DNA of 64,000 bases from Streptosporangiales bacterium. Its GTDB lineage: Bacteria > Actinomycetota > Actinomycetes > Streptosporangiales > WHST01. Position numbers and translations under genes: made by a program. The notes under the pieces are model-generated. The model was not told where the DNA came from, ran no database searches, and worked only from the letters and a program-made list of their open reading frames with translations. Within the stretch, counting starts at the first letter, position 1. Each line of letters opens with the position of its first letter. Below, piece after piece: positions 35,639 through 52,787 of the stretch. The DNA is taken from assembly GCA_009379825.1 (NCBI GenBank), contig WHTA01000020.1, positions 1 through 64,000 of the forward strand. Reading direction: 5' to 3'.

Positions 35639-37813
35639 TCAGCTCGGGCCGGGGGTGTGTCCCGGTCCGTTGGGGCCTGGCCGTTCGGTCTTGTCGCGGT
35701 CGTTGGTGCGTCGGTCCGCATTGGGGCCACGCCGGCCGGTCTGGCTGTATCCGACGGAGTGCCGGCCGTCGCGGAACTGGTCGGCGAACTTCCCCGGCTT
35801 GCCGCCGGTCGGTTGCTGTGTCGGAGCGGCCGGTCGCTCGGTCGGGGCCTGCTCGCCGCCACGGTGTGTCGGCTGGGGAGCGACGAAGGCACCGGGCTGG
35901 GGCGGCTGCTGCGGCGCGCCCGTCGGCACCGGGCCGGCCGGCTCCTCGGACTGCTCACGACCAGGCGGCGTGGGCTGCGGTTGACCGGGCGTGCCTTGCT
36001 GAACCTGCCCCTGCACCAAGTGGGGGTCGCGCTGCGGCTGGTTCGGCGGCTGCCCCTGCGCCCGATCCTGGTCGTGCTGCGGCCACACCGGCTGCTGCTC
36101 CTGGGTCTGTCCCGGTTGTTGCTGCTGTTCCAGCGACGTCAGCAGGTGCTCGGCCTGGCCGGCGGCCTGCAGGTACTGTTGCCGCTCGGTCTCGGCGCCG
36201 GTCACCTGCTGCTTGGCGGCTTCCAGCTGCTGGCCGATCTCACCCGCGTTGCGTGCGTGGACGTCGCGGCTCTGCGCGGCCACCATCGCCGCCTGCTGCG
36301 CCTGCTGCGCGGCCTGCTGTGCAGCGGCGGCTTGCTGTTCGGCCCACGGGGCACCTTGTTGGAACTCCTGCTGGTGACGTTGGGCTTCCTGCTGGTAGTA
36401 GCCGGCCCAGGCAGTGGCGTTGTGCCGGATCTGCTCCTGCTGCTGTGCCTCGTTGCCGGCCTGCGCCTGGATGCCGGTCAGGTACTCGACGTCCTGCTGC
36501 GCCTTGTCGCGCCGCTGGGTGGCGTCCTCGGCCCCACGCATTGCGAGGTCGCGCCACTGCGCGGCCTCCACCATCGTCGCCTGCCGCGGGTCGACCTGTT
36601 GCCCCTGGGCCTGCTGCGGTTTGCCAGCGGCCGGCGTCTGTTGCTGCTCAGGTTCCTGCGCGGGTGTCGGCGGGGCACCCAACGTTGCCCGGCCACCAAC
36701 CTCCTGCTGCGCCTGAGCGGGAGCTCGCTCGTCGTTCTCCCCGACCGGCCGTTGTTGCTGTGAATCGACGGACGGGGCGTCCGGCCGACCGCCGGGCAGC
36801 CGGGCCAGGCGCTCGTCCAGCTCCGCGGAACCCACCGGCTCCTCGCGGCCAGCTTCCCGCGATCCCAACCCGGCAGGTTCGTTCGTTCGCTTACCCCCGT
36901 CCTGCTCGCGCGCGGCCTGTCCGGCCTCTTGCGACCACCACTTGCCGTCCGCGTCCCGCCCCCTTGCCCGGACAGCGGCCGCGGCCCCCAGGTAACCCTG
37001 CGGCCGCAGGGCCCAGACGAGAGCAGCAGCGAAGCCCGCAGTGCCTGGGTTCAGGATCGGCTGGTCAGTCATACCTGCCGCAGCCATGCTCGCCGCGGTG
37101 CTCACCACCAGGCCCGTCACGCCCACGACGCGGAACTTCGGCACCTCGGTACGCGCCTCCGCGCTAACGGCCTGGCGGAATTGCTTGTCCTTGAGGAGCA
37201 GGGCGAAGACACCCGGTGTCTTGCCCTCGTTCGTGCGCCCCGGCAGGAACCTACTTCGCGCACCTGCCCAGGTGCGCTGAACGGCACCACCGGCACGCGT
37301 CTGGCCGAGCCACTCCACACCGGTGCGGACCTGTCGTGCCAAGGCCGCACGGCGGGTCTCGGCCCGGCGGGCACGGTGCCGACCACCGCGGCTACGGTTC
37401 GGCTCGTTCTCCTGCTGCTGGTCGGGTGGAGTGCCGGCGCGCCCTTCCACCTCCGCAGCCTGGCTGCGCGACGGAGCACGACGTCGACCAGGCAGCCGAC
37501 GCAGCCGGCTGAGCCACCCCTCGCCTCGCCGCACGCCTTGGTCGACCGTGGCGCCTTCCCGACTCGGCTGCTGCTCGGCTCGGCCGTCCGCCCGCCGTCT
37601 CGTCTGCTCGCGGTCGGCGGCGTGCCTGGAACGACGGTGCCTGCGCGTCTCCTGGTCGACGCTGCGGCCCGCGTCGACGCGCCCCTCCGTGCTGACGGTG
37701 AAGGAGAACTTCCGACCGAAGAGCTCCGCCTCGAATGCCACGCGGGCGGCTCCGCCCACGCGCGGAGTACGCTCCGGATCGCGCTGCCTGCGCTTGTGCA
37801 TCGGCCCGCTCAT
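35639..37813 (-). CDS. Large Gln/Pro-rich membrane-associated protein (T4SS cluster)
   Basis: Protein of 724 residues. A short N-terminal beta-like segment (VAFEAELFGRKFSFTVSTEG, residues 25-44) precedes ~150 Arg-rich residues. Two hydrophobic segments near 228-247 and 256-280 (VVGVTGLVVSTAASMAAAGM; GFAAALVWAL) could form a hairpin. A Gln/Ala-rich coiled coil runs about 395-560, and a Pro/Gln/Gly-rich disordered tail ends at PNGPGHTPGPS. The start codon overlaps the stop of the preceding double VIVPVG gene (ATGA), so the two are translationally coupled. It is the last gene of the minus-strand cluster. I do not recognise a family. Confidence 0.8.
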   Translation of the reverse strand: MSGPMHKRRQRDPERTPRVGGAARVAFEAELFGRKFSFTVSTEGRVDAGRSVDQETRRHRRSRHAADREQTRRRADGRAEQQPSREGATVDQGVRRGEGWLSRLRRLPGRRRAPSRSQAAEVEGRAGTPPDQQQENEPNRSRGGRHRARRAETRRAALARQVRTGVEWLGQTRAGGAVQRTWAGARSRFLPGRTNEGKTPGVFALLLKDKQFRQAVSAEARTEVPKFRVVGVTGLVVSTAASMAAAGMTDQPILNPGTAGFAAALVWALRPQGYLGAAAAVRARGRDADGKWWSQEAGQAAREQDGGKRTNEPAGLGSREAGREEPVGSAELDERLARLPGGRPDAPSVDSQQQRPVGENDERAPAQAQQEVGGRATLGAPPTPAQEPEQQQTPAAGKPQQAQGQQVDPRQATMVEAAQWRDLAMRGAEDATQRRDKAQQDVEYLTGIQAQAGNEAQQQEQIRHNATAWAGYYQQEAQRHQQEFQQGAPWAEQQAAAAQQAAQQAQQAAMVAAQSRDVHARNAGEIGQQLEAAKQQVTGAETERQQYLQAAGQAEHLLTSLEQQQQPGQTQEQQPVWPQHDQDRAQGQPPNQPQRDPHLVQGQVQQGTPGQPQPTPPGREQSEEPAGPVPTGAPQQPPQPGAFVAPQPTHRGGEQAPTERPAAPTQQPTGGKPGKFADQFRDGRHSVGYSQTGRRGPNADRRTNDRDKTERPGPNGPGHTPGPS

Positions 37814-39165
37814 AGCGCGTAGTTCAGCGGATCGATGAACGCGCAGCCGGCGGAGATCATCGCCGGCAGCACGATGGCCACGGACCTCGCCACGTCTTCA
37901 GGGCTGAGCCCGACCGGGGTCTCGCCAGGCGGCAGCCCCTCGTCGGCACCCTCGGCCAGCGCGGTGCAGGCGTCCCACAGGGACGCGCACGTCAGGCCGT
38001 ACGACCGGATCATGTACGGCTCGGGTTCTATCGACAACAAGATTTCCCCCTCGACCCCGAGACCGTAGAGATCAGGACGCTGCGGTGTGTTCCCGTAGGC
38101 GTCGCCCAACGGGAAGAGCTGTACGGCACGGAACAGGTCGCGCAGCGGGCCCTGCACGGGATCGAACTCCACGAGCAGCCCGCGCGCCAGCATGCCGGCG
38201 ACCAGGTCCTCGGCGTTCGGCAGACCCTCGGCGGACCGCAGGTGTTCGACCAGCGTCGTCTTCGTGACCTGGTGCCGCACGTGCTGCTGGAAGCCGTCGG
38301 CAGCGGCATGCCAGGCGAGGAACTCCTCCATGGTCAGGTCGACGTAGCGGGTGCCGAGATGCAGTTGGTAGTACTGGTCGGGACGGTCCGCGGGATCGCC
38401 CTCCCAGAAGTCCCAACCCATCGGGACGCCGACCGGAACGATGACCGGAGTACGGCCCGGCGACGCCGAACGTCCACCGTCGGTCGGGAACTCGACCGGG
38501 CCGGGGACGGTCGGCAGGTCGTAGTTCAGCGGGTCGAGGAACGCTGCCTTCGTGCTGACCAGCATCGGCAGGCACTCCGCGACGTTACGTGCGACCTCGT
38601 CCGCCGTCAGGTGCAACGGCTCCTCGTCGGGCGGGCGGTCAGCGTCGACGCCGGACGCGTACCCGGCGCAGGCATCCCACAGGGTCGGGTAGGTGAGGGC
38701 GAACGACCACAGCTGGTACACGTCAGGACCGACCGCGCAGAACCTGCTCGACCCGTACCCGATCCCGAACAGCTCGCGCTCGTGCACGGTGCTGCCCAGG
38801 CCGAGGGCGCGTGGATACAGCCGGTGCCTGCTGAGCAGCTGCTCGAGGTCGCCGGCCTCGGGGTCGAACTCGAGCAGCAGGCCGCGGTGGATCAGCTCGT
38901 CGATGAGCGGCGACGCGTCGGGGAACCGGCCGGTCGGCTCGTGGCCGAAGTCGCGGAGGTACTCGACCAGCCAGTCGCGGTCGACCTTCAGGTTGATCTG
39001 CGCTTCCGGGTCGGCGAAGCCGGCTGACCATACGGTGTACAGCTCGGCCGTCAGCTCCTCCGGCTCACCGCCGAGATGGATCTCGCAGTAGTTCGGCGGG
39101 CGCGCGGGAGGACCGTCCTCCGGATACACAGGTCCCATGTCGAGACCAACCGGGACAATCACCAT
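37810..39165 (-). CDS. Double VIVPVG-domain protein A (novel paralogous family)
   Basis: Protein of 451 residues made of two tandem copies of the ~215-residue domain shared by five genes here. Copy 1 starts MVIVPVGLDMGPVY and ends AAFLDPLNYDL; copy 2 starts PVIVPVGVPMGWDFW and ends CAFIDPLNYAL. Each copy has LxxRGLLxEFDP, a LFPLG/LYPRA...G segment, YxxxWSxxLTxxxLWDAC and the terminal FxDPLNY motif. There is no signal peptide or membrane helix, so it is probably cytoplasmic. I start at ATG 39165 by alignment to the paralogues; a TTG 13 codons upstream is possible. Its stop overlaps the start of the 724-residue disordered protein gene. Function unknown. Confidence 0.85.
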   Translation of the reverse strand: MVIVPVGLDMGPVYPEDGPPARPPNYCEIHLGGEPEELTAELYTVWSAGFADPEAQINLKVDRDWLVEYLRDFGHEPTGRFPDASPLIDELIHRGLLLEFDPEAGDLEQLLSRHRLYPRALGLGSTVHERELFGIGYGSSRFCAVGPDVYQLWSFALTYPTLWDACAGYASGVDADRPPDEEPLHLTADEVARNVAECLPMLVSTKAAFLDPLNYDLPTVPGPVEFPTDGGRSASPGRTPVIVPVGVPMGWDFWEGDPADRPDQYYQLHLGTRYVDLTMEEFLAWHAAADGFQQHVRHQVTKTTLVEHLRSAEGLPNAEDLVAGMLARGLLVEFDPVQGPLRDLFRAVQLFPLGDAYGNTPQRPDLYGLGVEGEILLSIEPEPYMIRSYGLTCASLWDACTALAEGADEGLPPGETPVGLSPEDVARSVAIVLPAMISAGCAFIDPLNYAL

Positions 39166-39463
39166 TGACCTGCCCGCCGTTCCTCCTCGTTCGTAACGAA
39201 ACAACTGTACGGGAGATTCGCGGGTAAATGGTCGCCGTCATCCACAGGTTGAGGCGAGGAAGATCACGCACCGTGCACCGGCCGGCGTCTCGAAACCCAC
39301 ACCACCGCCGTCAGCAGAGCCCCTCACGCCGCTTGACAAGACATAGAAGCATCCAAGCTGCGAGCCACCCTCAATGATGCTGGCCTCAGCCAAGCTGGAG
39401 ATCGCCAACCGCACGGAACTGGCCGCGCTCGTTACGTCCGCCCCACCACGGCATTAGCCGCTG
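39166..39463. other. Intergenic region before VIVPVG gene A
   Basis: This ~300-bp stretch holds no convincing gene. It contains the odd palindrome TTCGTTACGAA (in the minus-strand leader, about 39190-39200) and GAGGAGG 16 nt before ATG 39165. Because the preceding gene ends at 39464, a separate promoter for gene A and its partner may lie here. Confidence 0.4.
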
Positions 39464-40813
39464 CTACCGAGCGCTGCGGTTCGGGTCCTGCTGCTGCGGG
39501 CGACTTTCGGTTGCCCTGTCCTGTGCCGGCGTACCGCTGCCCGGGCGTTGGCCGCTGCGCTCGGGGTGCCGGTTGACCGGCTGCTGCTGCTGCGGTCGGG
39601 AGGCACTGACCGCCCGTGGACCGCCGCCCTGGACCTGGCTCTGCCATTGTGGCGGCTGCGCAAAGGAGCCGGGCTGCTGCGGCGCCTGGCCCCCGGGCTG
39701 TTGTGGTGGCCCCCCATGCGGCGCCGGCGCAAACCCCTGCGGCTGCTGTGGTGCCGCACCCTGCGGCGCGGGACCGCGCCCCGGCTGCTGCGGCACCGCC
39801 TGCTGTGGCGGCATCCCCGGCCGCTGGCCCTGCGGCGCCATCTGGGGTTGCTGCGGCACCGCCTGCTGCGGCACCTGACCCGGCTGCTGCGGAGGCATCT
39901 GCGGCTGCTGCGGCACCGCCTGCTGTGGCGGCATCCCCGGCCGCTGGCCCTGCGGCGCCATCTGCGGTTGCTGCGGCACCTGACCCGGCTGCAGCGCCTG
40001 CCCACGACCCACCACAGGCGCCTGCTGCGGCATCGGCGGCACCGGCGCCCGCCCCACCGCAGGCTGCTGCTGCGGCATCTGCACGCCGGCGGCCTGGCCG
40101 AGCTGCTGTACGCGGGCGTTGATGTCCGCCGCCGGTGGGATCTGCTGCGGTGACTGCGCGGGCCGCCCATGTCTGATTGGCGGCTGGTTCCTGTCGCGGC
40201 GGCCGTCGCGGCGGCGGCCCGGCTCCTGGGCCTGCCGTGTCTCACGCCGTGCCTTGATCCGTTCCGCTACGTTCTTGACGGCCTGGACCACGTGCCGCAC
40301 CCCGGGCAGTGCGGCCAGACGTGCCATGCGGCCACGTTGGGCCGGCGTCGCCTGCCGGCCGACGTCGACCGGCCGGCTCGGTCCGGGTTGCTGCCGGGCG
40401 TTCGGCACCTGGTTGGCGATCCGGCCCTCGGCACGCACCGCACGCCACTGCTGGAACTGGCCGTTCAGCCGTCGACCTTCCTGGATCATGTTCTTGGGCC
40501 GGAACATGCCCACCGGGTGACGCATGGCGTAGTTGAAGGCCCACTTCAGGGTGCCGATCGGCGCCTTGACACCGAGCCACCACAGACCCTTCACCGCCGC
40601 CTTGATGCCGCGGCCGACCTTGCGCATCTTCCCCGGCTTGGCCTGCTTGTCCGGGTTCTTCTGCGCACGGTGTCGGCCGCGCTGTTGCGCCACCGGTGGC
40701 TGGCCGGCGCGCCCGGCCGCGTGCGGTGGGCCCGCTCGGCCGCGGCCCGCGGCGTTACGGTGTCCGGTAGGCGACAGGCCCGCCTGCATGCGTAGGTGTG
40801 GTGGCACGTACAT
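39464..40813 (-). CDS. Pro/Gln-rich low-complexity protein (T4SS cluster)
   Basis: Protein of 449 residues. Basic N-terminus (KPGKMRKVGRGIKAAVKGLW near residue 55), then a moderately hydrophobic/amphipathic stretch (WWLGVKAPIGTLKWAFNYAM). A basic region is followed by ~220 residues dominated by Pro-Gln-Gln repeats with Met/Gly (MPPQQ, QAVPQQP, QGQRPG). It is probably disordered and phase- or surface-active, but its function is unknown. ATG 40813 overlaps the stop of double VIVPVG gene B by one base (TAATG), repeating the pairing seen for genes A and C. The nearly identical 78-bp DNA repeat inside it shows recent expansion. Confidence 0.75.
   Translation of the reverse strand: MYVPPHLRMQAGLSPTGHRNAAGRGRAGPPHAAGRAGQPPVAQQRGRHRAQKNPDKQAKPGKMRKVGRGIKAAVKGLWWLGVKAPIGTLKWAFNYAMRHPVGMFRPKNMIQEGRRLNGQFQQWRAVRAEGRIANQVPNARQQPGPSRPVDVGRQATPAQRGRMARLAALPGVRHVVQAVKNVAERIKARRETRQAQEPGRRRDGRRDRNQPPIRHGRPAQSPQQIPPAADINARVQQLGQAAGVQMPQQQPAVGRAPVPPMPQQAPVVGRGQALQPGQVPQQPQMAPQGQRPGMPPQQAVPQQPQMPPQQPGQVPQQAVPQQPQMAPQGQRPGMPPQQAVPQQPGRGPAPQGAAPQQPQGFAPAPHGGPPQQPGGQAPQQPGSFAQPPQWQSQVQGGGPRAVSASRPQQQQPVNRHPERSGQRPGSGTPAQDRATESRPQQQDPNRSAR
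39783..39980. repeat. 78-bp direct repeat with 120-bp period inside the Pro/Gln-rich gene
   Basis: Bases 39783-39860 and 39903-39980 are identical except at one position (39845 versus 39965). They encode the repeated QMAPQGQRPGMPPQQAVPQQP-type block, shown here only in outline. This is a coding minisatellite, not a CRISPR or mobile element. Confidence 0.85.
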
Positions 40814-42144
40814 TACGGCTGGCTCACCGGGTCGATGTACGCGCAGCCGGCGGAGATGAGGGCGGGCAACGCCCCCGCTACGGCCCGGGCTACGTTCTCA
40901 GCCGTCACGGCTTCCGGTTCCTCCTCCTGCGCAGCCGCGTCCTGCAAGCTCCCTGCGAGTGTGGCACAGGCATCCCACGCCGTGGGGGTGGTGAGTGCGT
41001 ACGACCACACTGTGTACGTGATGGCGTCCACCTCCACCAGCGGCTCGTCCTCGACACCGAGACGGAACAGCTCCGGCTGCTCCTGGGTGTTCCCCAGCCC
41101 ATCGCCCAGCGGGTAGAGACGCACGGCGCTGAGCAACGGCTCCACCGGCCCTTCGCTCGGTTCGAACTCGACCAGCAGGCCACGGTCGAGCAGCCGCGTC
41201 ACCACGTACGCCGCGTCGGTCATGCCCTGCACGGCGAGGTCACGCACCAGGGTCTCCCTGGTCACCTCGTGCCTGGCATGCCGGCCCAGGTCGTTGAACG
41301 CCGCCAGCCACGCGGTGAACTCCGCCCGCGACAGGTCGGCGTACTCGTACGCCAGATGCGCCTGGTAGTACTGCTCGTCCCGCTGCTCCGGGTCGTCGTA
41401 CCAGTAGTCCCAGCCCAACGACATCCCGACGGGGACGAGCACCGGCGGCCGTCCGTCGGGCGCCCGACGCGGCAACGGCACCGGCTCTGGCGGAGGCACC
41501 GGCGGGTCGTAGTTCACCACGTCGAGGAACGCCGCCCGCGTGCTCACCAACAGCGGCAGGTTCTCCGCCACCTGGTCCGCCACCTCACCTGCGGTCAGGT
41601 TGAGCGGCTCATCGTACGGCGGCAGGTCGAGGTCCACCGTCTCCGCGAACTGCCTGCAGGCATGCCACAGCGACGGCAGGGCGATGCCGAACGACCAGAC
41701 GTGGTACACGTTCGACGGCACCTCGGCGAACCGGCTCGAGCCGTAGCCGATGCCGTACATGTACGGCAGTTGCGCGGTGCTGCCGAGCCCGAGCGCGCGC
41801 GGGAACAGCCGGTGCGTGCCGAACACCGCCGCGAGCCGGTCGCCCGCACCGGGCTCGAACTCGAGGAGCAGACCGCGTTCCACCAGCCGGCCAATGACCG
41901 CGGCGGGGTCGGCGACCTGCGCCGGATGCTGGTGTACGGCCTCCTCCAGCCGCGCGCGGTCGACCTTGAGGTCCAGATGGGCGTCCGGATCGGCGAACGC
42001 GCACGCCCACACCGTGTACTCGGCGACGTCGAGTTCCTCGGGACTGCCACCGAGATGCACCTGGTAGTACAGGAGAGTCGGGTCCGCGGTATCTTGTTGT
42101 ACGTACACCGGGCCCATGTCCAAGCCCACCGGCACGATCACCAT
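40813..42144 (-). CDS. Double VIVPVG-domain protein B
   Basis: Protein of 443 residues, two tandem VIVPVG domains. Copy 1: MVIVPVGLDMGPVYVQQD to STRAAFLDVVNYDP. Copy 2: PVLVPVGMSLGWDYWYDD to SAGCAYIDPVSQP, with YPLGDGLGNTQEQPELFRLG between. It is most similar in layout to protein A, and copies 1 of A and B resemble each other (YGIGYGSSRF in both), as do copies 2 (GWDYW/GWDFW). So the double form arose once and was then duplicated. ATG 42144 is preceded by GGTGGGG. It is coupled at its 3' end to the Pro/Gln-rich protein gene. Function unknown. Confidence 0.85.
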   Translation of the reverse strand: MVIVPVGLDMGPVYVQQDTADPTLLYYQVHLGGSPEELDVAEYTVWACAFADPDAHLDLKVDRARLEEAVHQHPAQVADPAAVIGRLVERGLLLEFEPGAGDRLAAVFGTHRLFPRALGLGSTAQLPYMYGIGYGSSRFAEVPSNVYHVWSFGIALPSLWHACRQFAETVDLDLPPYDEPLNLTAGEVADQVAENLPLLVSTRAAFLDVVNYDPPVPPPEPVPLPRRAPDGRPPVLVPVGMSLGWDYWYDDPEQRDEQYYQAHLAYEYADLSRAEFTAWLAAFNDLGRHARHEVTRETLVRDLAVQGMTDAAYVVTRLLDRGLLVEFEPSEGPVEPLLSAVRLYPLGDGLGNTQEQPELFRLGVEDEPLVEVDAITYTVWSYALTTPTAWDACATLAGSLQDAAAQEEEPEAVTAENVARAVAGALPALISAGCAYIDPVSQP

Positions 42145-42230
42145 CGACGCCCCACCGATTCGCTGTCGTCCAACCACCGAGCACACCCTACGGGAATCGC
42201 CGCTGGTCGTGGGGTAACCGACGGGGCCCG

Positions 42231-43478
42231 TCAGAAGCGTGAACGGGGCGGCTCGGCGCGCTCCGCACCCGGGCGTCCGGTGCCGCGACCGGGCTGGCTC
42301 GGTGCGCTCGGCGCAGCCCTCCTGCTGGTGCCGCGCGGACCGGCGACGGTGGCGCGGGCGCCTCCCCGCCGCGGCGCCGGGTTGTCGGTACGCTCCTCCG
42401 CCGGCCAGCCGTCCGACCGCAGGCCGGCCGCCACCGGACGGGTGCTCGGCGCACTCCGCGGTGGCTGGCCACCTCCCCTGGCGACGTCCGCGCGCAGTTG
42501 GGCGACGTCGTCCCTGAGCTTCTCGTAGCCCGCGCTCAGCTGCTGGATCTGCTTGTCCTGCGCTACGTCCGCGCGGAGGCTGCGCTCGTGCTTGCTCTCC
42601 TGCCGATCCTCCCACCGCTTGTCGCCGCGCTCGCGCAGCTTCGTGACGGTGGCAGAGAGCGCACCCCTGGTGGTGGCCGTCGTCACCCACACCGCGACAC
42701 CTGCGGCGACCGCGAGTCCGACACCGCCCGCCTGGAACCCGGAGAGCACGGCGGCCCCGACCGCTGCAGTGCGGCCCATGGAGACGGCGTCGAGCAGCAG
42801 GTACTTGCTGATCTCGTACCCGTACAACCGTTGCACCGGCTTCGGCTCTTTGCTTTCTCCTCGCCGGACACGATCCTTGACCCGCGCCCAGTTCCGTCGC
42901 GCGAACTGCCCGACGGTTCGACGGTCACCGCGATGCCTGCCCCGACCGCGGGCGCCACGCAAGACGTCCCAGCGGCCGCGCGGCACCTGCGCCGTCGGCT
43001 GGTGTTCGTTGGCACGTACGGCGGCCTGCTCCTGTCGGTGGCGTGCGTGCTGCGCCCAGCGGTCGGCCTCGGCCGGCGACAGGTCGTGACCGGGCTGGCG
43101 GTAGCCGTAGACGAAGTACCGCGGGTCGCCGTCGAACCGCCCGCTGATGTGGGTGATCCGCCACTGCGGCGAGCCATGCTGGTCCCTGCCCTGCCACAGA
43201 GCGCCCAGTTGCCAACCCTGGTCGGGCAACGGCACGGCGGGTTCGACCGCAAGCCCGTCGGGTACGTGGTAGCCGGCGAGCAGTCGCTGGGGGACGCCGG
43301 ACATGGTCTGGCTGAGGTACCGGAAGCGAGGCGTCCCCTCGTGGTCCCGCCAGCTGACGACCAACCGCCAGTTGCCCGGCGGCTGCTGCGCCGACTCGGG
43401 GATCGACCACCAGCGGTCGGTGGCTTCCTGCTCCCCGGCTCGGGCACGGTGACGGGGGCGGCGCGACCACACCCTCAT
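42231..43478 (-). CDS. Membrane/coiled-coil protein with tandem WxLxxLW-type N-terminal repeats
   Basis: Protein of 415 residues. Two related ~45-residue units lie at about 36-75 (NWRLVVSWRDHEGTPRFRYL) and 87-130 (GWQLGALWQGRDQHGSPQWR, then GDPRYFVYGYRQPG). Next come a basic segment, a hydrophobic hairpin (AAVGAAVLSGFQAGGVGLAV, then AAGVAVWVTTATT), a coiled coil (DKQIQQLSAGYEKLRDDVAQ) and an Arg/Pro-rich tail. The neighbouring 657-residue protein shares the same architecture, and both begin MR-WSRR. ATG 43478 is the chosen start. Family not recognised; a scaffold at the membrane is my guess. Confidence 0.78.
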   Translation of the reverse strand: MRVWSRRPRHRARAGEQEATDRWWSIPESAQQPPGNWRLVVSWRDHEGTPRFRYLSQTMSGVPQRLLAGYHVPDGLAVEPAVPLPDQGWQLGALWQGRDQHGSPQWRITHISGRFDGDPRYFVYGYRQPGHDLSPAEADRWAQHARHRQEQAAVRANEHQPTAQVPRGRWDVLRGARGRGRHRGDRRTVGQFARRNWARVKDRVRRGESKEPKPVQRLYGYEISKYLLLDAVSMGRTAAVGAAVLSGFQAGGVGLAVAAGVAVWVTTATTRGALSATVTKLRERGDKRWEDRQESKHERSLRADVAQDKQIQQLSAGYEKLRDDVAQLRADVARGGGQPPRSAPSTRPVAAGLRSDGWPAEERTDNPAPRRGGARATVAGPRGTSRRAAPSAPSQPGRGTGRPGAERAEPPRSRF

Positions 43479-43671
43479 CCGCGGACCCGCGGGCCGGTGG
43501 ACCGGCGGCGACGGTGCCGAGGAAGTCGGTCGACGAGAACCCGCATTGCACCCCCGGTCCGATCCGTGCGGCCGCGTCGTACGTCGAACGCGCCGAGCTG
43601 ACCAAATCGAAGGTAGTAAAGCCGCATGTGGCGACGGTGAACCTCACCTGACGCCTCGGTTAACCCGCTCC

Positions 43672-45645
43672 CTAGTCGGGACCGCGGGTTGGCGGCTGGC
43701 GGTTCGGACCGCGCTGGTCGTCCGCCGGCCGCTTCGGGTCGCCGTCACCGCGTCTGCCACTCGCGCCACGGCCCTGGTTCTGGTCGGCCGGTGGGTCGGG
43801 TGAGCCACGGTGTTCAGCGGTGCCGTGACCGGTACCGGCCTGTACCGCCCGCTCGAGCCCTTCGATCTGCTCACCGAGCCCGCCGACCACCGCGCGCAGG
43901 TCCTTGATCTGACCGGTCTGGAAGTCGTCCACCCGGTCCTGCTTCTCACCGATCCGCCTGAGCTCGGCGATGTGCTCATTCTGGATCAGGCCCACCTTGC
44001 GACCCCACTCGACCAGGCCCTCCAGCCGATCGTGGGTGTTCAGCAAGCCACGTTGGTTGTCGTACAGCGTCTGCTGGTTCTCCCCCAGGGTCTTCGCCTG
44101 ACCCTCGAGCGCGCCCTGCACCTTGGCGTTCGCCTTCTCCTGCTGGCGCATCCCGTAGAGGCCCACGGCCGAGATGAACGGTGTCATCAGGACCGCTGGC
44201 AACACCAGGCCCCAGTTGCCGGACACCGCGTACGTTGCCGCTGCGACGCCCTGCAACGGGCCGGACGTGATCATGATGTGGTCGAGGTAGGTCTTCCACA
44301 TCGGGCGCGACTTGACGTCGCCCTCGGCACGGTTGCGTTCCTTGGTCAGCGGCTTGATCCTGCCCAGCCGCCGACCGGGCGCCCGCGACGGCCGTTGTCG
44401 CGTCCGCCGCTCCCGGTACCGCGCGGCGGACTTCGGCGTGACCTGTTGCGCCGGATCGCCCTGGTGCCGAGGTACGGCGGTCTCCTGACCACGTTCGGCA
44501 CGCCGGGCGAGGATCTGCCGCGCCCGTACCGTGGTGAGCGTGGCCAGTCCGGCCAGCGCGGCGCCCACGAACGGGTTGGCCGTCAGGACGCTGGAACCGG
44601 CCGCAATGACGCCGCCGACCACGGTGCCGCCGGCAGCGCCGGCGGCGAGCGCCACCAGCCAGTTCCGCAGCGGCCGGTGGATGCTGGTTTTCGGGTGCCG
44701 GCCCGGACCACGTTCGTCCGGCTCGGCGCCCGGGGCGCCGCCCTCTTGCGTCCGCGGCGCCGCCGGGGTCGGCGGGGTACCCAGTGCACGCCCGGGCGGC
44801 TGCTGCTGGACGCCCGGCATCGGCTGCGTCGGCGGGTCACCCCGCTGCTGCTGCGAAGTAGGCGGCGGCTGGGGAGCACCGGATGGCTGCTGCGCTGCCG
44901 GTGGCTGCGGAGGACCGGGTGTCTGCACTCCCGGTGGCTGCTGCTGCGGAGCATCGGGTTGCTGTTGTGCGACGCCGGGCGGCAGCTGCGGAGCAGGAGG
45001 CGGTGGCGGGGGGGCCGGTGGCTGTTGCTGCGCCGCCGGGGGCGGCTGCGGGGCACCGGAGGGCTGACCGGCCGGTGGCTGCTGTGGAACGGGCGGCTGC
45101 TGTTGTGCGGCCTGTTGTTGCGAGGCACCGGGCCCCGACGGTGTCGCCGGCGCCTGGGGCGGTGGAGCACTTGCGGCCGCCTCTGCGCGTACTCGTTCGC
45201 GCAGCCACGCCCGATAGTTCTCCTGCGCCTGGCCTTCCGACTGCCGGGACTCCTCGAACGACACCTCGGGGCCTGGCGGTCGATAGCCGAACAGGAACTG
45301 GTTGGGATCGCCCTGTTGTGGACCGGTCAGGATGCTGACGCTGTCGACCGGCCGCCCATGTTCGTCCCAGTCCTGCCACAGGGCCGCGAGTTGCCAACCC
45401 CGATCCGGCGCTCCGGGCAGACCCAGCGGGGCCCAGTCGGGTACGGGGACGCCGCGCAACGCGTTCTGTGGATCGCCTACCATCGGCCGCGTCAGCGCGG
45501 TGACGGTCGGCTCCGGAGCACCGTGCCGGTCGCGGCCGTACCACAGGACGGCCAGCTGGAAGTCACCCTGAGGCCCCTCGGCCGTCAGCTGGACGTCACC
45601 TTCGGGGCCGCGAATGCCGGTGCGGCGTCGTCGACTCCACCTCAT
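43672..45645 (-). CDS. Large Pro/Gln-rich membrane and coiled-coil protein with tandem WxLxxLW repeats
   Basis: Protein of 657 residues. N-terminal tandem units DFQLAVLWYGRDRHGAPEPT and GWQLAALWQDWDEHGRPVDS (each followed by a GDPxxxLxG-type turn) match those of the 415-residue neighbour. A Pro/Gln-rich disordered region follows (about 165-300), then a first hydrophobic hairpin (LVALAAGAAGGTVVGGVIAA), a basic stretch and a second hydrophobic pair (NWGLVLPAVLMTPFISAVGL). A long coiled coil (AKTLGENQQTLYDNQRGLLN to LGEQIEGLERAVQAG) precedes a basic tail. ATG 45645 overlaps the stop of VIVPVG gene C (ATGA). Function unknown; probably a membrane-anchored partner of protein C. Confidence 0.8.
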   Translation of the reverse strand: MRWSRRRRTGIRGPEGDVQLTAEGPQGDFQLAVLWYGRDRHGAPEPTVTALTRPMVGDPQNALRGVPVPDWAPLGLPGAPDRGWQLAALWQDWDEHGRPVDSVSILTGPQQGDPNQFLFGYRPPGPEVSFEESRQSEGQAQENYRAWLRERVRAEAAASAPPPQAPATPSGPGASQQQAAQQQPPVPQQPPAGQPSGAPQPPPAAQQQPPAPPPPPPAPQLPPGVAQQQPDAPQQQPPGVQTPGPPQPPAAQQPSGAPQPPPTSQQQRGDPPTQPMPGVQQQPPGRALGTPPTPAAPRTQEGGAPGAEPDERGPGRHPKTSIHRPLRNWLVALAAGAAGGTVVGGVIAAGSSVLTANPFVGAALAGLATLTTVRARQILARRAERGQETAVPRHQGDPAQQVTPKSAARYRERRTRQRPSRAPGRRLGRIKPLTKERNRAEGDVKSRPMWKTYLDHIMITSGPLQGVAAATYAVSGNWGLVLPAVLMTPFISAVGLYGMRQQEKANAKVQGALEGQAKTLGENQQTLYDNQRGLLNTHDRLEGLVEWGRKVGLIQNEHIAELRRIGEKQDRVDDFQTGQIKDLRAVVGGLGEQIEGLERAVQAGTGHGTAEHRGSPDPPADQNQGRGASGRRGDGDPKRPADDQRGPNRQPPTRGPD

Positions 45646-46289
45646 AGCTCATAGTTCAGCGGGTCGAGGAAACAACAGCCGCTGACGACCAACACCGGCA
45701 AGGCGGCTGCGACCTGAGCGGCGACGGCCTCTGCGGTGAGGCCGATCGGCTCCTCACCGGGTTCGAGATCCTCGTCCAGGCCCTGCGCCAGCTCCGCGCA
45801 CGCGTCCCACAGGGACCTGCAGGTGAGCGCGTACGACCAGACGGCGTAGACATCCGCGTTCACCGTTACCAACGTCTGTCCGCCGATGCCCAGCTCGTAA
45901 CCGGTCGGGTCCTCGGGGGAGTTGCCCATGCCCTGCACGAGCGGGAACAGCTGGTGGTCGCGGAAGACGTTCTCCGCGGACCCGTTCTCCGGGTCGTACT
46001 CGACGAACAGTCCGCGCTCGACCAAGCCGGCGACGACCGTGTCCGGGTCGTCGACGCCAGCGGCGTTCTCCTTGACCAGCTGGGCCAGGGTGGACCGGCT
46101 CATCTCGTGGTTCGCGTGCCGCTGCACGTCGACGAACGCGGCACCCCACACGGTCACCTCGTCGCGAGTGAGATCCGCGGCCACGGTGCCGAGGTGAATC
46201 TGCCAGAACTCCGACGGCCGCTCGGCCGGGTCACCGGGGCCGAAGTCCTGCCCCATGTTCAACCCGGCGGGTACGATCACGGTCGCCAT
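45642..46289 (-). CDS. Single VIVPVG-domain protein C
   Basis: Protein of 215 residues that defines one full domain. VIVPAGLNMG is at 4-13, IHLG at 31-34, LVERGLFVEYDP at 89-100, LFPLVQGMGN at 114-123, VYAVWSYALTCRSLWDAC at 147-164 and the terminal GCCFLDPLNYEL at 204-215. The first half (VTVWGAAF ... ERGLFVEYDP) and second half (YAVWSYAL ... GCCFLDP) look like diverged copies of one winged-helix-like unit. AAGGAC precedes ATG 46289. Its stop overlaps the start of the 657-residue protein gene. No family recognised. Confidence 0.85.
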   Translation of the reverse strand: MATVIVPAGLNMGQDFGPGDPAERPSEFWQIHLGTVAADLTRDEVTVWGAAFVDVQRHANHEMSRSTLAQLVKENAAGVDDPDTVVAGLVERGLFVEYDPENGSAENVFRDHQLFPLVQGMGNSPEDPTGYELGIGGQTLVTVNADVYAVWSYALTCRSLWDACAELAQGLDEDLEPGEEPIGLTAEAVAAQVAAALPVLVVSGCCFLDPLNYEL

Positions 46290-46347
46290 CTCTTGTCCTT
46301 TCCCCGGTCCGGCCCGCCGATCCACACTGCTGCTCGACGGGCGGGAC

Positions 46348-47004
46348 TTACCCCAGCTCGTAATTCAACGGATCGAGGAAGGCGGCGCCAGTGCTCACCA
46401 GCATGGGGATGGCGCTACCCACCTCGCGCACGAGTGTCTCCGCGTCGACGTCGATCGGAGTCTCGCCAGGCTCGACGTTCGTCGCGGCCTCGGCCATGTC
46501 CACGCACGCGTCCCACAGCGACGCGAAGGTCAACGAGTACGACCAGAGCTGATACGCGTTCGACGACACGGAAGCGATCGGCTGACCGGCGAACCCGATG
46601 CGGTACTGGGTCGGCTCGTCCGGCGTGCTGCCGAGCCCCTGCCCCTGCGGGAACAGCCGCAGCCCGCGGAACAGCTCCTCCAGCGGTCCCTCGAGCGGGT
46701 CGTACTCCACCAGCAGACCGCGCTCGACCAGACCGGTGACGACGGACGCCGGGTCGGCAAGCGGACCCCCGAGCCCGTTGTCCGTACGTAGGAACTCTTC
46801 CAGCGACTTGCGGTTCACCTGCAGCTCGGCGTGCCTGGGCGGATCGGTGAACGCGCCGGCCCAGGCGACGAACTCGTCGGTGGTCAGGTTCTGCGGGTCA
46901 CCGCCGAAGTGCACCTCGTAGTGCAACGGCTCGCGGTCGGGCTCACCGTCGGGACCGAACTCCGGCCCCATGACGAACCCCACCGGCACGATCACCGTCG
47001 GCAT
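46348..47004 (-). CDS. Single VIVPVG-domain protein D
   Basis: Protein of 218 residues: MPTVIVPVGFVMGPEFGPDG, LVERGLLVEYDPLEG, LFPQGQGLGSTPDE, YQLWSYSLTFASLWDACVDM and STGAAFLDPLNYELG, so every family motif is present. GGAGG stands 8 nt before ATG 47004. It lies 58 bp upstream of gene C on the same strand and probably shares its transcript. A pair of 9-bp direct repeats lies about 70-100 bp upstream. Function unknown. Confidence 0.85.
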   Translation of the reverse strand: MPTVIVPVGFVMGPEFGPDGEPDREPLHYEVHFGGDPQNLTTDEFVAWAGAFTDPPRHAELQVNRKSLEEFLRTDNGLGGPLADPASVVTGLVERGLLVEYDPLEGPLEELFRGLRLFPQGQGLGSTPDEPTQYRIGFAGQPIASVSSNAYQLWSYSLTFASLWDACVDMAEAATNVEPGETPIDVDAETLVREVGSAIPMLVSTGAAFLDPLNYELG

Positions 47005-47611
47005 ACCACAGCCTCCGCATCACGGGCGTTCGCTGAACCGGCTGAACTCGCTTCGCCGCTAAAGTCGGCTCACTCTACGTCTTGTCGGCGCTACGTTACG
47101 TCTTGGGCTCACACTACCCGAGCTGGCTGACCGGCGGTTATGACAACCACATGCAGTTGCGCCCTACCCGGATACGTCAACGCGCACCTCGGCCACCCTG
47201 CCGGGATGTGGACCGGTCCCCACTTCGACCGCTGCCAGACCGCGTGCTCTGCCGGGGCTCCGGCCGAGCGCGGTCGTTGGTACGTGCCACCGGCCGGTCG
47301 TGCGCTGCGGCGCGGTGGCCGGCGCGTGCACTGCGCGCGTTCACGGCAACCACGTGCTGAGGCGTCGAGGAGCTCTGCAGACCGGCGACCACCGCCGACG
47401 ACGACCGGCCGGAGCTCAGCGCCACGGCACTGCGTCCCGCCGACCCTCGGCCGTAGAGGTCACTGGTGGTTTGGCGATCCGCAGCCATGGTGGTTGTCCC
47501 CCTAGCGTCGGCGGTCCCGGTCAGGTACTAACGCGAGGATATCGGTTTCCCGGCCCGCACGGGATACTTGAAAGTAACTTGTCGGATTGCCCACAACACG
47601 TGTCCACCGGT
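47005..47611. other. 600-bp intergenic region between VIVPVG genes D and E
   Basis: No convincing gene. A 121-codon plus-strand frame (47140-47505) has poor composition and no good ribosome-binding site. The region contains the direct repeats at 47076-47105, the small palindrome GGTTATGACAACC near 47138, and AT-richer sequence near 47535-47585. It is the longest non-coding stretch in the cluster and probably carries a promoter for genes D and C and what follows. Confidence 0.5.
47076..47105. promoter_or_regulatory. Paired direct repeats upstream of gene D
   Basis: TACGTCTTG occurs at 47076-47084 and 47097-47105, start to start 21 bp, two helical turns. Tandem sites on one helix face are typical of an activator or oligomeric repressor binding upstream of a promoter; here that would be the promoter of gene D on the minus strand. 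Confidence 0.35.
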
Positions 47612-48256
47612 CTACGCGGCTACCGGGTCGAGGAACGCGCACTCGGCACTGACCAACAGCGGGATGTTCACCGCGAGCTCACGCATGACGCTCTCCGCGT
47701 CGAGCTCCTCCATGTCCCCGCCAGGAGTGACGTACTGGTTCATCTCCTTGGCGAACTGCTGGCACGACTGCCACAGGTTCAGGTAGTACAACGAGTTCGA
47801 CCACAGCGCATAGACGTCACCGTTCACGCCGATACGCGGCTCGCTGCCGACGGCGATGCGGTACATCAACGGGTCGTCGCCGCTGTTGCCCATGCCCACG
47901 CCGAGTGGGAACAGCCGGTGCTTGCGCGCGATCGTCTCCACGTCGCCCTCGACCGGATCGAACTCGATCAGCAGGCCGCGCTCGATCAGCTCATCGACGA
48001 TCTTGCCCGGACGGCTGATCACGCCCTTGGTCGCCTTGCGCACGGTGTCGAGCAGCAGCTCGCGCGTACCTTCCAACTTGGCCTGGCGCTCCGGCTCCAC
48101 CATCGCGGACGCCCACACCTTGACCTCGTCGGCGTTGAGTTGCTCGGCGTACCCGCCGACGCTCACGTGCCAGAACTCCGGACTGCTGCTGTGTTGGCCG
48201 TCGACCCGGAAGTACTCGCCCAGCATCATGCCCACGGGCACGATCACCTTCGGCAT
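47612..48256 (-). CDS. Single VIVPVG-domain protein E (most divergent copy)
   Basis: Protein of 214 residues starting MPKVIVPVGMMLGEYFRVDG. It keeps LIERGLLIEFDPVEG, HRLFPLGVGMGNSGDDPLMY, VYALWSNSLYYLNLWQSCQQ and SAECAFLDPVAA. The WDAC motif is changed to WQSC and the NYEL end is lost, so it is the outlier of the family. GAGGGAG lies 9-13 nt before ATG 48256. It directly follows the VirB4 gene (about 55 bp), which ties the family to the secretion ATPase. Function unknown. Confidence 0.85.
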   Translation of the reverse strand: MPKVIVPVGMMLGEYFRVDGQHSSSPEFWHVSVGGYAEQLNADEVKVWASAMVEPERQAKLEGTRELLLDTVRKATKGVISRPGKIVDELIERGLLIEFDPVEGDVETIARKHRLFPLGVGMGNSGDDPLMYRIAVGSEPRIGVNGDVYALWSNSLYYLNLWQSCQQFAKEMNQYVTPGGDMEELDAESVMRELAVNIPLLVSAECAFLDPVAA

Positions 48257-48312: not shown

Positions 48313-49893
48313 CTACTTGGTCGCCGTCGGAAGGTACACGACGCCATCCTTGTCGGCACCGGGGTCCTGGTCCTTGCTCTCGATCGCGTTCGCCCATTTT
48401 CTGTTGGTGTCGTTGAGACTCAGCTCCGCGGGGGTGAGCACCATCTCGAACGGCATGCCGGCCTGCCCGCCGACCTTCACCAGGAACTTCCCTCGCCCCG
48501 GCGGCGCCGTCTCCCGACCGGTCTCCTGGTCGAGCGACGGCGGGGTGGACCACGAGACGATGAGCTGCTGCTCGCGCCGGGTCATCGGCACGATCTGGTT
48601 CAGCAACTGCATCTCGCGCCGCGGCAAGCCACCGCAGATGATCAGGCCGGCGCGCTCGACGAAGCCCTTCGCCTTGGCGACGTCCTCCTGGTCACGCAAC
48701 GACTCGAGGTCGCTCATGGTGTGCGTCGTCATCGACTGGCCGACGCCGTACGTGCGGTTGAGTCGGGTCAGCTCGTCGATCCGGTCGACCAGACCGACAC
48801 CGGCACGCAGGATTCGCCACAACTCGTCCAGCACCAGGTAGAAGTGGCGTGGCCGCTCACCCTTCGACACCGCCAACGCGTCGGCCGCCTCGACGGTGGC
48901 GAACGCCTCCGCCCAGCAGGCCAACAGCACCGAACCCTCGAGCAGCTGGTCCGATGCCGGGATGCTCGACAGGTCGACCGATGCCGGCCGGTCGAGCGGA
49001 AACCTGTTGCTCGTCTGCGCGTTGAAGGTCTTGCCGAGCGGACCGTGCACCAGCGAGAGCAGCGAACGCATCAACGGCTCGACGGAATGCGCGTACTTGG
49101 CGTCGTCCTCCGTCGACAACGTCATCAGCCGCAGCTCTTCCGGACCCTCCTGGATCAGCCGGCCGAGGTCTTCCAGGATCGGCGCGTCACCGTCCGAATG
49201 CTTGTGCTCGAGCAACTGTACGGCGGCATCGATGAAGTTCTCCTCATCACCGCTCACGCTGCCTCGCCTGGCGATGGCGATGAGCGCGGCCACCATGTTC
49301 GAGCGCCGCCCGCGCGCGTTCGCCGACAGCTCCTCGCGAGCCCGGCCGGTCAGGCTCTGCGACACCGTGCCCATCTCGCCGAGGTCGAGCGGGTTCAGCG
49401 TGCCCTGGCCGCGCCCGAGCCGCACGACGGAGCCACCGAGCGCCTCGATGATGTCGCTGTACTCACCCTTGGTGTCGCCGGGCACGATCCCTACCGTGCC
49501 GCGGAAGTTCAACCCGACGAGCAGGCGGCGTTGCACCGTCGACTTGCCCAGACCGGGCAGCGCCAGCGTGAACATCGACGGGTTCGCGATGAGCGAGGCG
49601 CGCTCGAACCAGGCGATGGGGTCCATGCACAACGTCGAGCCGGTGATCAGGTCGCGGCCGAGCGGCACGCCGATCATCGGTGTGCCTGCGCCGGCGATGA
49701 AGGGCCAGAGGCCGCACACCTGGCGGGTGGTAGCACGGTACTCCTGCGGCAGGTCGAGGTAGCTCATCTTCCCGCCACCGCGACCGTTGAGGCCCTTACG
49801 GGTGAGCTTGGTCGTCTCTTGTACGGCCAGCCCCTCACCAGTGGGCTCGGTCTCGGGAATGTCCCGCTCGTCCTTGCGCTTGCGACGCCCCAT
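48313..49893 (-). CDS. VirB4/TraC-type T4SS ATPase
   Basis: Protein of 526 residues, essentially the ATPase half of VirB4. Walker A is PGLGKST at 113-119 and Walker B is LVLDELW at about 353-359, with GTLNPLDLGEMG and the later SMTTHTMSDLESL helices as in VirB4/TraC. It lacks the large N-terminal VirB3/VirB4 domain; the separate SCO6880-family protein encoded just upstream (18 bp) probably supplies it, a split typical of actinobacterial systems. The ATPase powers assembly or substrate transfer at the inner face of the membrane. ATG 49893. Confidence 0.92.
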   Translation of the reverse strand: MGRRKRKDERDIPETEPTGEGLAVQETTKLTRKGLNGRGGGKMSYLDLPQEYRATTRQVCGLWPFIAGAGTPMIGVPLGRDLITGSTLCMDPIAWFERASLIANPSMFTLALPGLGKSTVQRRLLVGLNFRGTVGIVPGDTKGEYSDIIEALGGSVVRLGRGQGTLNPLDLGEMGTVSQSLTGRAREELSANARGRRSNMVAALIAIARRGSVSGDEENFIDAAVQLLEHKHSDGDAPILEDLGRLIQEGPEELRLMTLSTEDDAKYAHSVEPLMRSLLSLVHGPLGKTFNAQTSNRFPLDRPASVDLSSIPASDQLLEGSVLLACWAEAFATVEAADALAVSKGERPRHFYLVLDELWRILRAGVGLVDRIDELTRLNRTYGVGQSMTTHTMSDLESLRDQEDVAKAKGFVERAGLIICGGLPRREMQLLNQIVPMTRREQQLIVSWSTPPSLDQETGRETAPPGRGKFLVKVGGQAGMPFEMVLTPAELSLNDTNRKWANAIESKDQDPGADKDGVVYLPTATK

Positions 49894-51431: not shown

Positions 51432-52787
51432 CTAGAGCTCACCTCCCTGCCCGCTGCCGGACGGGCCGAGTTCCTCGCCGCCCGAGCTCATCTCCCGGTC
51501 CATCTCGTACTTCATCTGCTCACCAGCCTGCTGTGCGGTCCCCGCGATCGCTCCGACGGCCAGAGCAGCCCCTCCGGTCGCGGCTCCGGCAGCCGCCGTA
51601 CCACCGGCCGCCGCCGTACCGCCACCGCCACCGCCGGCCGCGCCACCGACACCTCTACCGCCACTGCCGGTGGTCGGCGCGGTGGAGCCCATCTTCCCGC
51701 CACTCTCCGCCGGTGAGGCGCCTTGCGGTCCACCGCGTAGGCCGCCTTCCGCCTGGTAGCTCTGCCGGACATCACCGCCGCCTTGGCCACCGGTCGGCTG
51801 CGACCCCGACGGCTCGGCCTGATCACTCGGCCCGCTGTCCGGCATGCCGCCACCGCCGACCGCGGAACCGGCGAGCGCGACGCCGACAGGTGTCAGCAGC
51901 CGCAGCAGCGCCGGGAGCACGAATACCGCGCCGCCGATCAGCACCAAGCCGGACAGCGATGCCTTGATGTCCAGGTCTTCCCCGCCAATATCCTCGCTCT
52001 GGTTCATGAACAGTTTGAAGGCAACGGCGTAAATCGTTGCCGCGGCCGGCTTCATACAGATGAACGCCAGCATCCAGGCGATGTACTTGTTCAGCCACTT
52101 CCGCCCGGTCTCGGTGGTAGCCGCGGCCGCGGGCAAGATGATGGTGCCAGCGAGAACCACGAGGACCGCGCCTCGGAACATCATCAGGATCAACTGGATG
52201 ATCATGGAGATGATCATCAGGCCACCGAAGAGGAGGAAGAGTAGTACCGACTCGGCAACCGTGACGACGTCCTTCCAGGCATCGCCATCGGCCATTCTCT
52301 CCCAGAGACTTTGGTCGCCGCTGGAGTACTTGGCCTCGTTCAGGATCCACTCGGTGTACCTGTCACCGATCCACAGCAACACATGCACGACCTGGATCAC
52401 GAGCACGCTCGCGATCACCAGCGTAAGGAGTCCGCGCAGCACCTCTTTCAGGTTCTCGTGGTAGCCGCGGGAGAAGTTCCACATCATCCGGCCGCCGGCC
52501 ACCGCGATCCCAATAGTGGCAACGATGAACGACAACCAGATCAGGTTGTCACTGGTCCAGCTCGCCACGTTGTCGAACGCGCCAGGCGCGTTGCCGTCAC
52601 CCAGCGGGTTACCGGCACCGACACCAGGAGTGTCGACCCTGAGGAACCCCGAGTAGAGTTCCTGGATCAGGGACGCCATGGTCTCGGCCACCAGGACTGC
52701 GATCGCCCTGAAGATCGTGCCGACCGGATCCTGGAAGAATTGGACGACCACCTCGAGGACATCTGCTATGTCACCCAGTGGGCCCAT
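51432..52787 (-). CDS. VirB6/TrbL-like polytopic T4SS channel protein
   Basis: Protein of 451 residues with about seven membrane helices (LIWLSFIVATIGIAVAGGRM, LLTLVIASVLVIQVVHVLLW, LFGGLMIISMIIQLILMMF, IAWMLAFICMKPAAATIYAV, LVLIGGAVFVLPALLRLL). A Gly/Ala/Ser-rich cytoplasmic or external tail of ~120 residues ends GPSGSGQGGEL. Number of helices and position beside VirB4 fit VirB6, the inner-membrane channel subunit. It lies four bases downstream of the VirB8-like gene. Confidence 0.82.
   Translation of the reverse strand: MGPLGDIADVLEVVVQFFQDPVGTIFRAIAVLVAETMASLIQELYSGFLRVDTPGVGAGNPLGDGNAPGAFDNVASWTSDNLIWLSFIVATIGIAVAGGRMMWNFSRGYHENLKEVLRGLLTLVIASVLVIQVVHVLLWIGDRYTEWILNEAKYSSGDQSLWERMADGDAWKDVVTVAESVLLFLLFGGLMIISMIIQLILMMFRGAVLVVLAGTIILPAAAATTETGRKWLNKYIAWMLAFICMKPAAATIYAVAFKLFMNQSEDIGGEDLDIKASLSGLVLIGGAVFVLPALLRLLTPVGVALAGSAVGGGGMPDSGPSDQAEPSGSQPTGGQGGGDVRQSYQAEGGLRGGPQGASPAESGGKMGSTAPTTGSGGRGVGGAAGGGGGGTAAAGGTAAAGAATGGAALAVGAIAGTAQQAGEQMKYEMDREMSSGGEELGPSGSGQGGEL

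What the first reader, a model, noticed from the sequence alone, without database searches (positions are those of the whole stretch)
37810..48256. Seven copies of an unfamiliar ~215-residue 'VIVPVG' domain in five genes beside a T4SS ATPase
Sequence shows: proteins A and B have two copies each, C, D and E one each. Shared landmarks are [M/P]xVIVPVGxxMG at the start, L[V/I]xRGL[L/F][V/I]E[F/Y]DP, [L]FPLGxGxGN, Y..WS..LT..SLWDAC, and AFLDPLNYEL at the end. I know no named family with these. The first and second halves of each domain look like diverged repeats of one winged-helix-like unit, which is inference. Repeated duplication next to VirB4 suggests substrates, chaperones or adaptors of the secretion machine; this could be the undescribed system in the window.
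Basis: partly seen in the sequence, partly recalled or inferred. Interest (0 to 1): 0.9.

Follow-up and report, generated by a model that had tools for sequence, protein, structure and literature searches.

The report
Tandem peptide-clamp-like proteins beside secretion system
A rare family of acidic actinobacterial proteins, found seven times beside a type IV secretion machine, looks like a double peptide-gripping clamp that probably holds very basic partner proteins, in one relative a toxin, for delivery to that machine.

Summary
Seven copies of one ~215-residue domain (30-55% identity, all pairs E<=3e-27) lie in five minus-strand genes downstream of VirB4 and SCO6880-family genes. No Pfam, NCBIfam, PHROG, PADLOC or credible PDB sequence match was found. 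An eighth copy is elsewhere in the genome; 18 copies in four genomes were found among ~1,100 searched, although the SCO6880 core is common (80 of 201).

AlphaFold2 (pLDDT 88) shows each domain is a duplicated unit: a small beta sheet, helices, a last strand. That resembles the RiPP "peptide clamp" (RRE/PqqD) fold. The best PDB match is ThcOx, which starts with two such clamps, but it is weak (E 0.016).

A tree indicates that the two-domain proteins A and B are fusions of neighbours D and C. The T4SS-linked copies are acidic (pI 4.1-4.7). They usually overlap, by 1 or 4 bp, a following gene for a strongly basic protein (pI 10-12). In a congener such a gene sits between a VirD4-like ATPase and a TNT-toxin protein, in a cassette that two related loci lack.

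Best reading: substrate adaptors/chaperones of a T4SS. Substrates, binding and secretion are inferred and untested.

The parts
47612..48256 (-). E: single-domain protein (214 aa), first gene after VirB4; proposed general adaptor
   Evidence: 69% identical to its counterpart in the MAG JAFMQP; pI 4.66
46348..47004 (-). D: single-domain protein (218 aa); closest to the first domains of A and B
   Evidence: 72% identical to MAG counterpart; tree groups it with A1, B1 and the MAG first domains, 94/95
45642..46289 (-). C: single-domain protein (215 aa); closest to the second domains of A and B; stop overlaps start of p657 (ATGA)
43672..45645 (-). p657: basic (pI 10.1), Pro/Gln-rich protein with Gly/Ala-rich hydrophobic segments and a coiled-coil-like C-terminus; proposed cargo of D/C
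   Evidence: 4-bp overlap with C
42231..43478 (-). p415: basic (pI 11.4); N-terminal domain shared with p657 (E 3e-16), hydrophobic hairpin; proposed second cargo
   Evidence: matches MAG gene L031:7504 (E 8e-8)
40813..42144 (-). B: two-domain protein (443 aa), B1 41506-42144 and B2 40816-41445
   Evidence: stop overlaps start of p449 (TAATG)
39464..40813 (-). p449: very basic (pI 12), Pro/Gln-rich partner following B
37810..39165 (-). A: two-domain protein (451 aa), A1 38515-39165 and A2 37813-38448; AlphaFold2 pLDDT 85.5, pTM 0.86
   Evidence: stop overlaps start of p724 (ATGA)
35639..37813 (-). p724: basic (pI 10.4) partner following A, one hydrophobic segment, Gln-rich coiled-coil-like region
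48313..49893 (-). VirB4-like ATPase
   Evidence: NF045971 E 3e-12, NF045975 E 4e-12; 82% identical in MAG
49912..51429 (-). SCO6880-family protein
   Evidence: NF042935 E 1e-141
51432..52787 (-). multi-spanning membrane protein, VirB6-like position; conserved upstream of SCO6880 in other genomes
   Evidence: 51% identical in MAG
52791..53546 (-). membrane-anchored protein conserved in SCO6880 loci
53543..53875 (-). small two-helix membrane protein, pilin-like
   Evidence: sequence
54019..54336 (-). small two-helix membrane protein, weak TrbC/VirB2 pilin match
   Evidence: PF04956 E 0.004, below cut-off
54309..55112 (-). DUF6668 protein, conserved at the head of SCO6880 loci (start uncertain)
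   Evidence: PF20373 E 1e-10
57548..59287 (+). M23 peptidase (cell-wall hydrolase, VirB1-like role); weak SLT-like match
   Evidence: PF01551 E 4e-19; PF13406 E 0.02 is below cut-off
60249..62114 (+). VirD4/TraG coupling ATPase
   Evidence: PF12696 E 2e-29, PF02534 E 2e-20

Best explanation
The copies form a substrate-adaptor (chaperone) family of an actinobacterial SCO6880-type T4SS. Each domain is a tandem of two peptide-clamp-like winged helices. D and C probably pair, and A and B look like D-C fusions. The acidic clamp would hold a segment of a strongly basic partner made from the next, overlapping gene (p657, p449, p724; also p415), keep it soluble, and pass it to VirD4/VirB4, with E as a common docking adaptor. 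Shown: the family, its internal repeat, predicted fold topology, gene order, tree grouping and charge contrast. Inferred: pairing, binding, delivery and the hub role of E.
For: (1) All seven copies, and seven more in MAG JAFMQP, sit inside the T4SS operon after VirB4. (2) In congener G001 a copy lies between a VirD4-like ATPase (PF02534 E 2e-28) and a TNT-toxin protein (PF14021 E 2e-29) with overlapping genes; two orthologous loci (VirD4 53-60% identical) lack the copy and the toxin. (3) Five of seven domain-to-partner junctions overlap by 1 or 4 bp, against 33 of 117 same-strand pairs. (4) Copies near T4SS genes have pI 4.05-4.66, partners 10.1-12.0, background median 5.6. (5) First domains of the fused proteins group with D (94/95), second domains with C (92/93). 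(6) AlphaFold2 pLDDT 88.2, pTM 0.85; the beta-sheet/helix unit occurs twice. Top PDB match ThcOx, whose residues 7-86 and 87-194 are two peptide-clamp domains. The N-terminal half matches PqqD profiles (21.3 against 9.6 +/- 1.8 shuffled; 57 unrelated windows reach at most 16.4).
Against: No binding or secretion evidence. The Foldseek match is weak (E 0.016, TM 0.26) and the fused model's top hit is unrelated (PKMT1, E 0.05; TruD only at rank 39). Only the N-terminal half matches PqqD. Window partners carry no recognised toxin or effector domain, and their hydrophobicity is not unusual. G001 has no VirB4 or SCO6880 match, so the toxin cassette is tied to a VirD4-like protein only. Three copies (own C41, G257 pair) are far from T4SS genes and the G257 pair is not acidic in the same way (pI 9.7, 5.5). 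E and D have no partner directly downstream.
Confidence: 0.5

Rival explanations
1. Structural parts: the domain proteins and their basic partners form an extra cytoplasmic or inner-membrane complex of this lineage's T4SS, with no secreted cargo among them.
For: E and D are 69-72% identical between species, close to DUF6668 (68%) and above the VirB6-like protein (51%) and p251 (46%); all lie in the core operon; several partners have hydrophobic hairpins.
Against: The core SCO6880 machine occurs in 80 of 201 genomes of the order while the family was found with confidence in only 4; G001 has a copy with a toxin gene and no VirB4/SCO6880; partners hardly align between species.
Confidence: 0.22
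2. Immunity proteins: acidic, duplicated proteins that neutralise toxins made by the neighbouring genes.
For: Acidic pI, duplication, adjacency to a TNT toxin gene in G001.
Against: They lie upstream of the partner, where immunity genes are usually downstream (own knowledge); D and E evolve slowly; no toxin domain was found in the window partners.
Confidence: 0.1
3. Winged-helix DNA-binding regulators of the T4SS operon.
For: Winged-helix-like units.
Against: pI 4.05-4.66 for every copy near T4SS genes, against DNA binding; seven different copies in one operon; no regulator-family match.
Confidence: 0.05
4. Peptide-maturation (RiPP) recognition proteins: true RREs that hand a precursor peptide to a modifying enzyme.
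For: Clamp-like fold.
Against: No Pfam or NCBIfam match to a RiPP enzyme among the genes scanned from 35.6 to 63.8 kb; no small precursor gene was noticed.
Confidence: 0.05

Closest known systems
RiPP recognition element / peptide clamp (PqqD; tandem clamps of ThcOx; clamps of TruD and MccB)
   Same: beta-sheet followed by helices; tandem arrangement as in ThcOx residues 7-194 (PMC5108345); PqqD profile similarity of the N-terminal half
   Different: four-strand start and an extra last strand per unit; no significant sequence match; acidic stand-alone proteins next to a T4SS, not a RiPP enzyme
T4SS adaptors/chaperones: IcmS/IcmW/LvgA with DotL, CagF with Cag-beta (PMC12981334, PMC12857230)
   Same: small acidic soluble proteins encoded with a T4SS, proposed to bring substrates to the coupling ATPase
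   Different: no sequence-family match detected; monoderm actinobacterial machine; several paralogues, most probably paired each with its own partner
EagR (DUF1795) chaperones of T6SS effectors with transmembrane helices (own knowledge)
   Same: chaperone gene next to an effector gene; several partners here have hydrophobic hairpins
   Different: different secretion system; no relation tested beyond the absence of a Pfam match
S. coelicolor SCO6871-6884 and cmdABCDEF clusters (PMC2782261)
   Same: SCO6880/CmdC-like core with neighbouring membrane protein and ATPase genes (by the paper's description; core synteny across the order)
   Different: the domain family was found in none of the other SCO6880 loci examined

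Membership tests
RiPP recognition element (PqqD-like) | N-to-C order beta-beta-beta then alpha-alpha-alpha (definition in PMC12710340) | tested here: inconclusive
   AlphaFold2: each unit is four strands, three to four helices, one strand; right general order but extra strands
RiPP recognition element (PqqD-like) | Significant match to PF05402 or structural match to an RRE | tested here: inconclusive
   No PF05402 match up to E 10; hhalign with 10 PqqD sequences above controls for the N-half only; Foldseek top hit ThcOx E 0.016, not below 0.001
RiPP recognition element (PqqD-like) | Binds a leader peptide as an edge strand | not testable with these tools
   needs binding data or a complex structure; a shared N-terminal motif in the partners was tested and not supported
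SCO6880-type T4SS locus | VirB6-like, SCO6880, VirB4 in a row, plus VirD4, pilin-like protein and M23 hydrolase | tested here: met
   (pilin match weak, E 0.004)
Conjugative element | relaxase in the locus | tested here: not met
   no relaxase family among the genes scanned from 35.6 to 63.8 kb; the rest of the genome was not searched
T4SS substrate chaperone/adaptor | small acidic protein encoded beside its substrate and coupling ATPase | tested here: inconclusive
   pI 4.05-4.66, overlap with partner genes, VirD4-copy-toxin order in G001; that the partners are substrates is not shown
T4SS substrate chaperone/adaptor | binds substrate and coupling protein, needed for export | not testable with these tools
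   needs experiment

The most novel reading that the evidence does not exclude
A peptide-clamp (RRE-like) fold has been redeployed, in tandem and duplicated form, as the cargo-recognition layer of a T4SS in Gram-positive bacteria, with one clamp pair per partner protein. In one lineage the partner is a TNT-domain toxin, although the 2012 survey of polymorphic toxins did not find T4SS used by them (PMC3482391).
Probability: 0.25. Interest if true: 0.8.

Novelty: new variant of a known kind. Interest (0 to 1): 0.57.

Why it matters
How chromosomal SCO6880-type T4SSs in Actinobacteria choose substrates, and whether they export proteins at all, is open as far as I know. If these proteins are adaptors, the gene next to each names a candidate substrate, which makes the question directly testable. 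It would also link the RiPP peptide-clamp fold to secretion: only two papers in the library hold both terms, and neither title nor abstract connects them.

Tried and rejected
Weak matches in four genomes of one genus of the order (G102, G111, G116, G120; E 3e-5 to 6e-4): the two examined are a Pro-rich membrane protein beside a conserved leuS-like gene; rejected as unrelated. A shared N-terminal beta-hairpin recognition motif in the partner proteins (YLSFGRDxxG type) looked convincing by eye but failed leave-one-out profile tests (ranks 9 to 212); not claimed. Hydrophobic segments as a distinguishing mark of partners: background proteins have as many. Similarity of the second half to SCO6880 (score 24): a 20-residue helix match, rejected; it also shows that such scores can arise without kinship. 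A DUF4913 reading of the 179-aa gene after TNT: no Pfam match. Plasmid, phage and viral-contig searches found no relatives.

Full report
OBSERVATION. The window contains seven copies of one domain in five minus-strand genes: A 37810-39165 and B 40813-42144 with two copies each, C 45642-46289, D 46348-47004 and E 47612-48256 with one each. All 21 pairs align over nearly the full length with 30-55% identity and E at or below 3e-27; 24 columns are invariant. Chance is excluded. An eighth copy (E-like, 52% identical to E) lies on another contig of the same genome.

FAMILY STATUS. No significant match in Pfam, NCBIfam, PHROGs or PADLOC, and none credible in the PDB sequences (one phmmer hit of D to a WD-40 protein at E 2e-4 had no stretch passing on its own and vanished with the profile). 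Whole-genome searches found the family in four of 347 genomes of the order (the window's genome G000, two congeners G001 and G002, and G257 of another family), and in no further genome of samples of 395 (class) and 396 (phylum). These samples overlap, and few candidates per genome were scored, so distant copies can be missed. G002 contig C295 has the length and content of JAFMQP010000023.1, a MAG named Acidothermales bacterium. Plasmid, phage and viral collections gave nothing.

SURROUNDINGS. On the minus strand, upstream of E, lie a DUF6668 gene, two small pilin-like proteins (one with a weak TrbC match), a membrane-anchored protein, a VirB6-like membrane protein, the SCO6880-family protein (E 1e-141) and the VirB4-like ATPase. 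On the plus strand are an M23 hydrolase and a VirD4/TraG ATPase. No relaxase was found among the scanned genes of the locus. The same core order is seen around SCO6880 in other genomes of the order, and none of those loci examined holds a copy of the domain. The closest described clusters are S. coelicolor SCO6871-6884 and cmdABCDEF (PMC2782261).

FUSION HISTORY. A maximum-likelihood tree of 18 domains puts the first domains of A, B and of the two MAG two-domain proteins with D (94/95), and the second domains with C (92/93, an open fork for C itself). D and C are neighbours in both genomes. The simplest reading is that A and B descend from a D-C fusion and that D and C act as a pair; this step is inference. 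For the first domain, the two window copies pair with each other and so do the two MAG copies, which suggests separate duplication or gene conversion in each lineage.

PARTNER GENES. C, B and A end with a 4-, 1- and 4-bp overlap with p657, p449 and p724. In the MAG one two-domain gene overlaps its follower by 4 bp (ATGA), and in G001 the copy overlaps the toxin gene by 1 bp and VirD4 by 4 bp. That makes five of seven domain-to-partner junctions overlapping, against 33 of 117 same-strand neighbours overall; the numbers are small and the pairs were chosen after looking. Partners are strongly basic (pI 10.1-12.0), most are Pro/Gln- or Lys-rich, and several have a Gly/Ala-rich hydrophobic hairpin; copies near T4SS genes have pI 4.05-4.66. 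p415 and p657 share an N-terminal domain (E 3e-16). Between window and MAG the core ATPases are 81-82% identical, D 72%, E 69%, C 55%, A and B 46-50%, and partners align weakly (p415, 35% over 84 residues) or not at all.

THE TOXIN CASSETTE. In G001 the order is M48 peptidase, VirD4-like ATPase, domain protein (190 aa), 1180-aa protein with a TNT domain (PF14021, E 2e-29), 179-aa protein, zinc-ribbon protein. Orthologous loci in G136 and G063 (VirD4 60% and 53% identical) have VirD4 and the follower, with an M48 peptidase before it in G136, but not the domain protein or the toxin. So the domain gene and the toxin gene seem to have come or gone together next to a coupling ATPase. G001 has no match to SCO6880 or to the window's VirB4, so a full T4SS is not shown there.

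FOLD. AlphaFold2 on 14 aligned members gives pLDDT 88.2 and pTM 0.85: E4-7, E10-16, E27-33, E36-40, four helices, E98-101, then much the same order again. The profile comparison of the two halves agrees, although unrelated short matches can reach similar scores. Foldseek against the PDB: no match below 0.001; best ThcOx 5lq4 (E 0.016, prob 0.57), whose first domain is two peptide-clamp domains, residues 7-86 and 87-194; MccB, which has a peptide clamp (own knowledge), is at rank 13. The N-half matches a PqqD alignment above shuffled and natural controls; the C-half does not. The fused protein A is predicted with pTM 0.86, but its top match is Rickettsia PKMT1 (E 0.05), with TruD (a clamp enzyme) at rank 39. 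I read the fold as clamp-like, with moderate confidence.

MECHANISM. Acidic tandem clamps bind basic partner proteins as these are made, keep them soluble and hand them to VirD4/VirB4; E, next to VirB4 and well conserved, may be the shared docking adaptor. Known T4SS parallels are IcmS/IcmW/LvgA (small, acidic, bind effectors and DotL) and CagF (docks with Cag-beta). Steps shown: family, repeat, predicted topology, gene order, overlaps, charge, tree grouping. Steps inferred: D-C pairing, binding, partner identity as cargo, secretion, the role of E.

VERDICT. Rivals, in order: structural parts of the machine (0.22), immunity proteins (0.1), regulators (0.05), RiPP maturation (0.05). I file it as a new variant of a known kind (T4SS substrate adaptors), not as a member of the RRE family, since the membership tests were inconclusive.

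Noticed in passing
L026:8072-15432 (G001:C19): VirD4-like ATPase without an obvious N-terminal membrane anchor, followed by a domain protein and a TNT-domain protein with a long AAKQQG-type basic repeat tail, in a genome without SCO6880/VirB4 matches; orthologous VirD4 loci in G136 and G063 lack the toxin cassette.
   Followed up: partly
window 42231-43478 and 43672-45645: p415 and p657 share an N-terminal domain with an apparent internal duplication (W-LA-LW--RD-HG-P) that matches no Pfam family.
   Followed up: partly
L031:2377-3726 (MAG JAFMQP): A DnaJ-domain membrane protein in opposite orientation between C' and A' of the MAG operon.
   Followed up: no
L025:16060-17282 (G000:C41): E-like orphan copy followed by a 187-aa protein with a long uncharged Gly/Ala segment, among metabolic genes, with no T4SS gene nearby.
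   Followed up: partly
L027:9307-10697 (G257:C35): Two adjacent diverged single-domain copies (pI 9.7 and 5.5) in a genome whose SCO6880-type T4SS lies on another contig; again a pair.
   Followed up: partly
window 55335-56918: Membrane-anchored protein with a possible beta-propeller outer part, conserved in the MAG (46%), no Pfam match.
   Followed up: no
window 47005-47611: 607-bp gap between E and D with no convincing gene.
   Followed up: no
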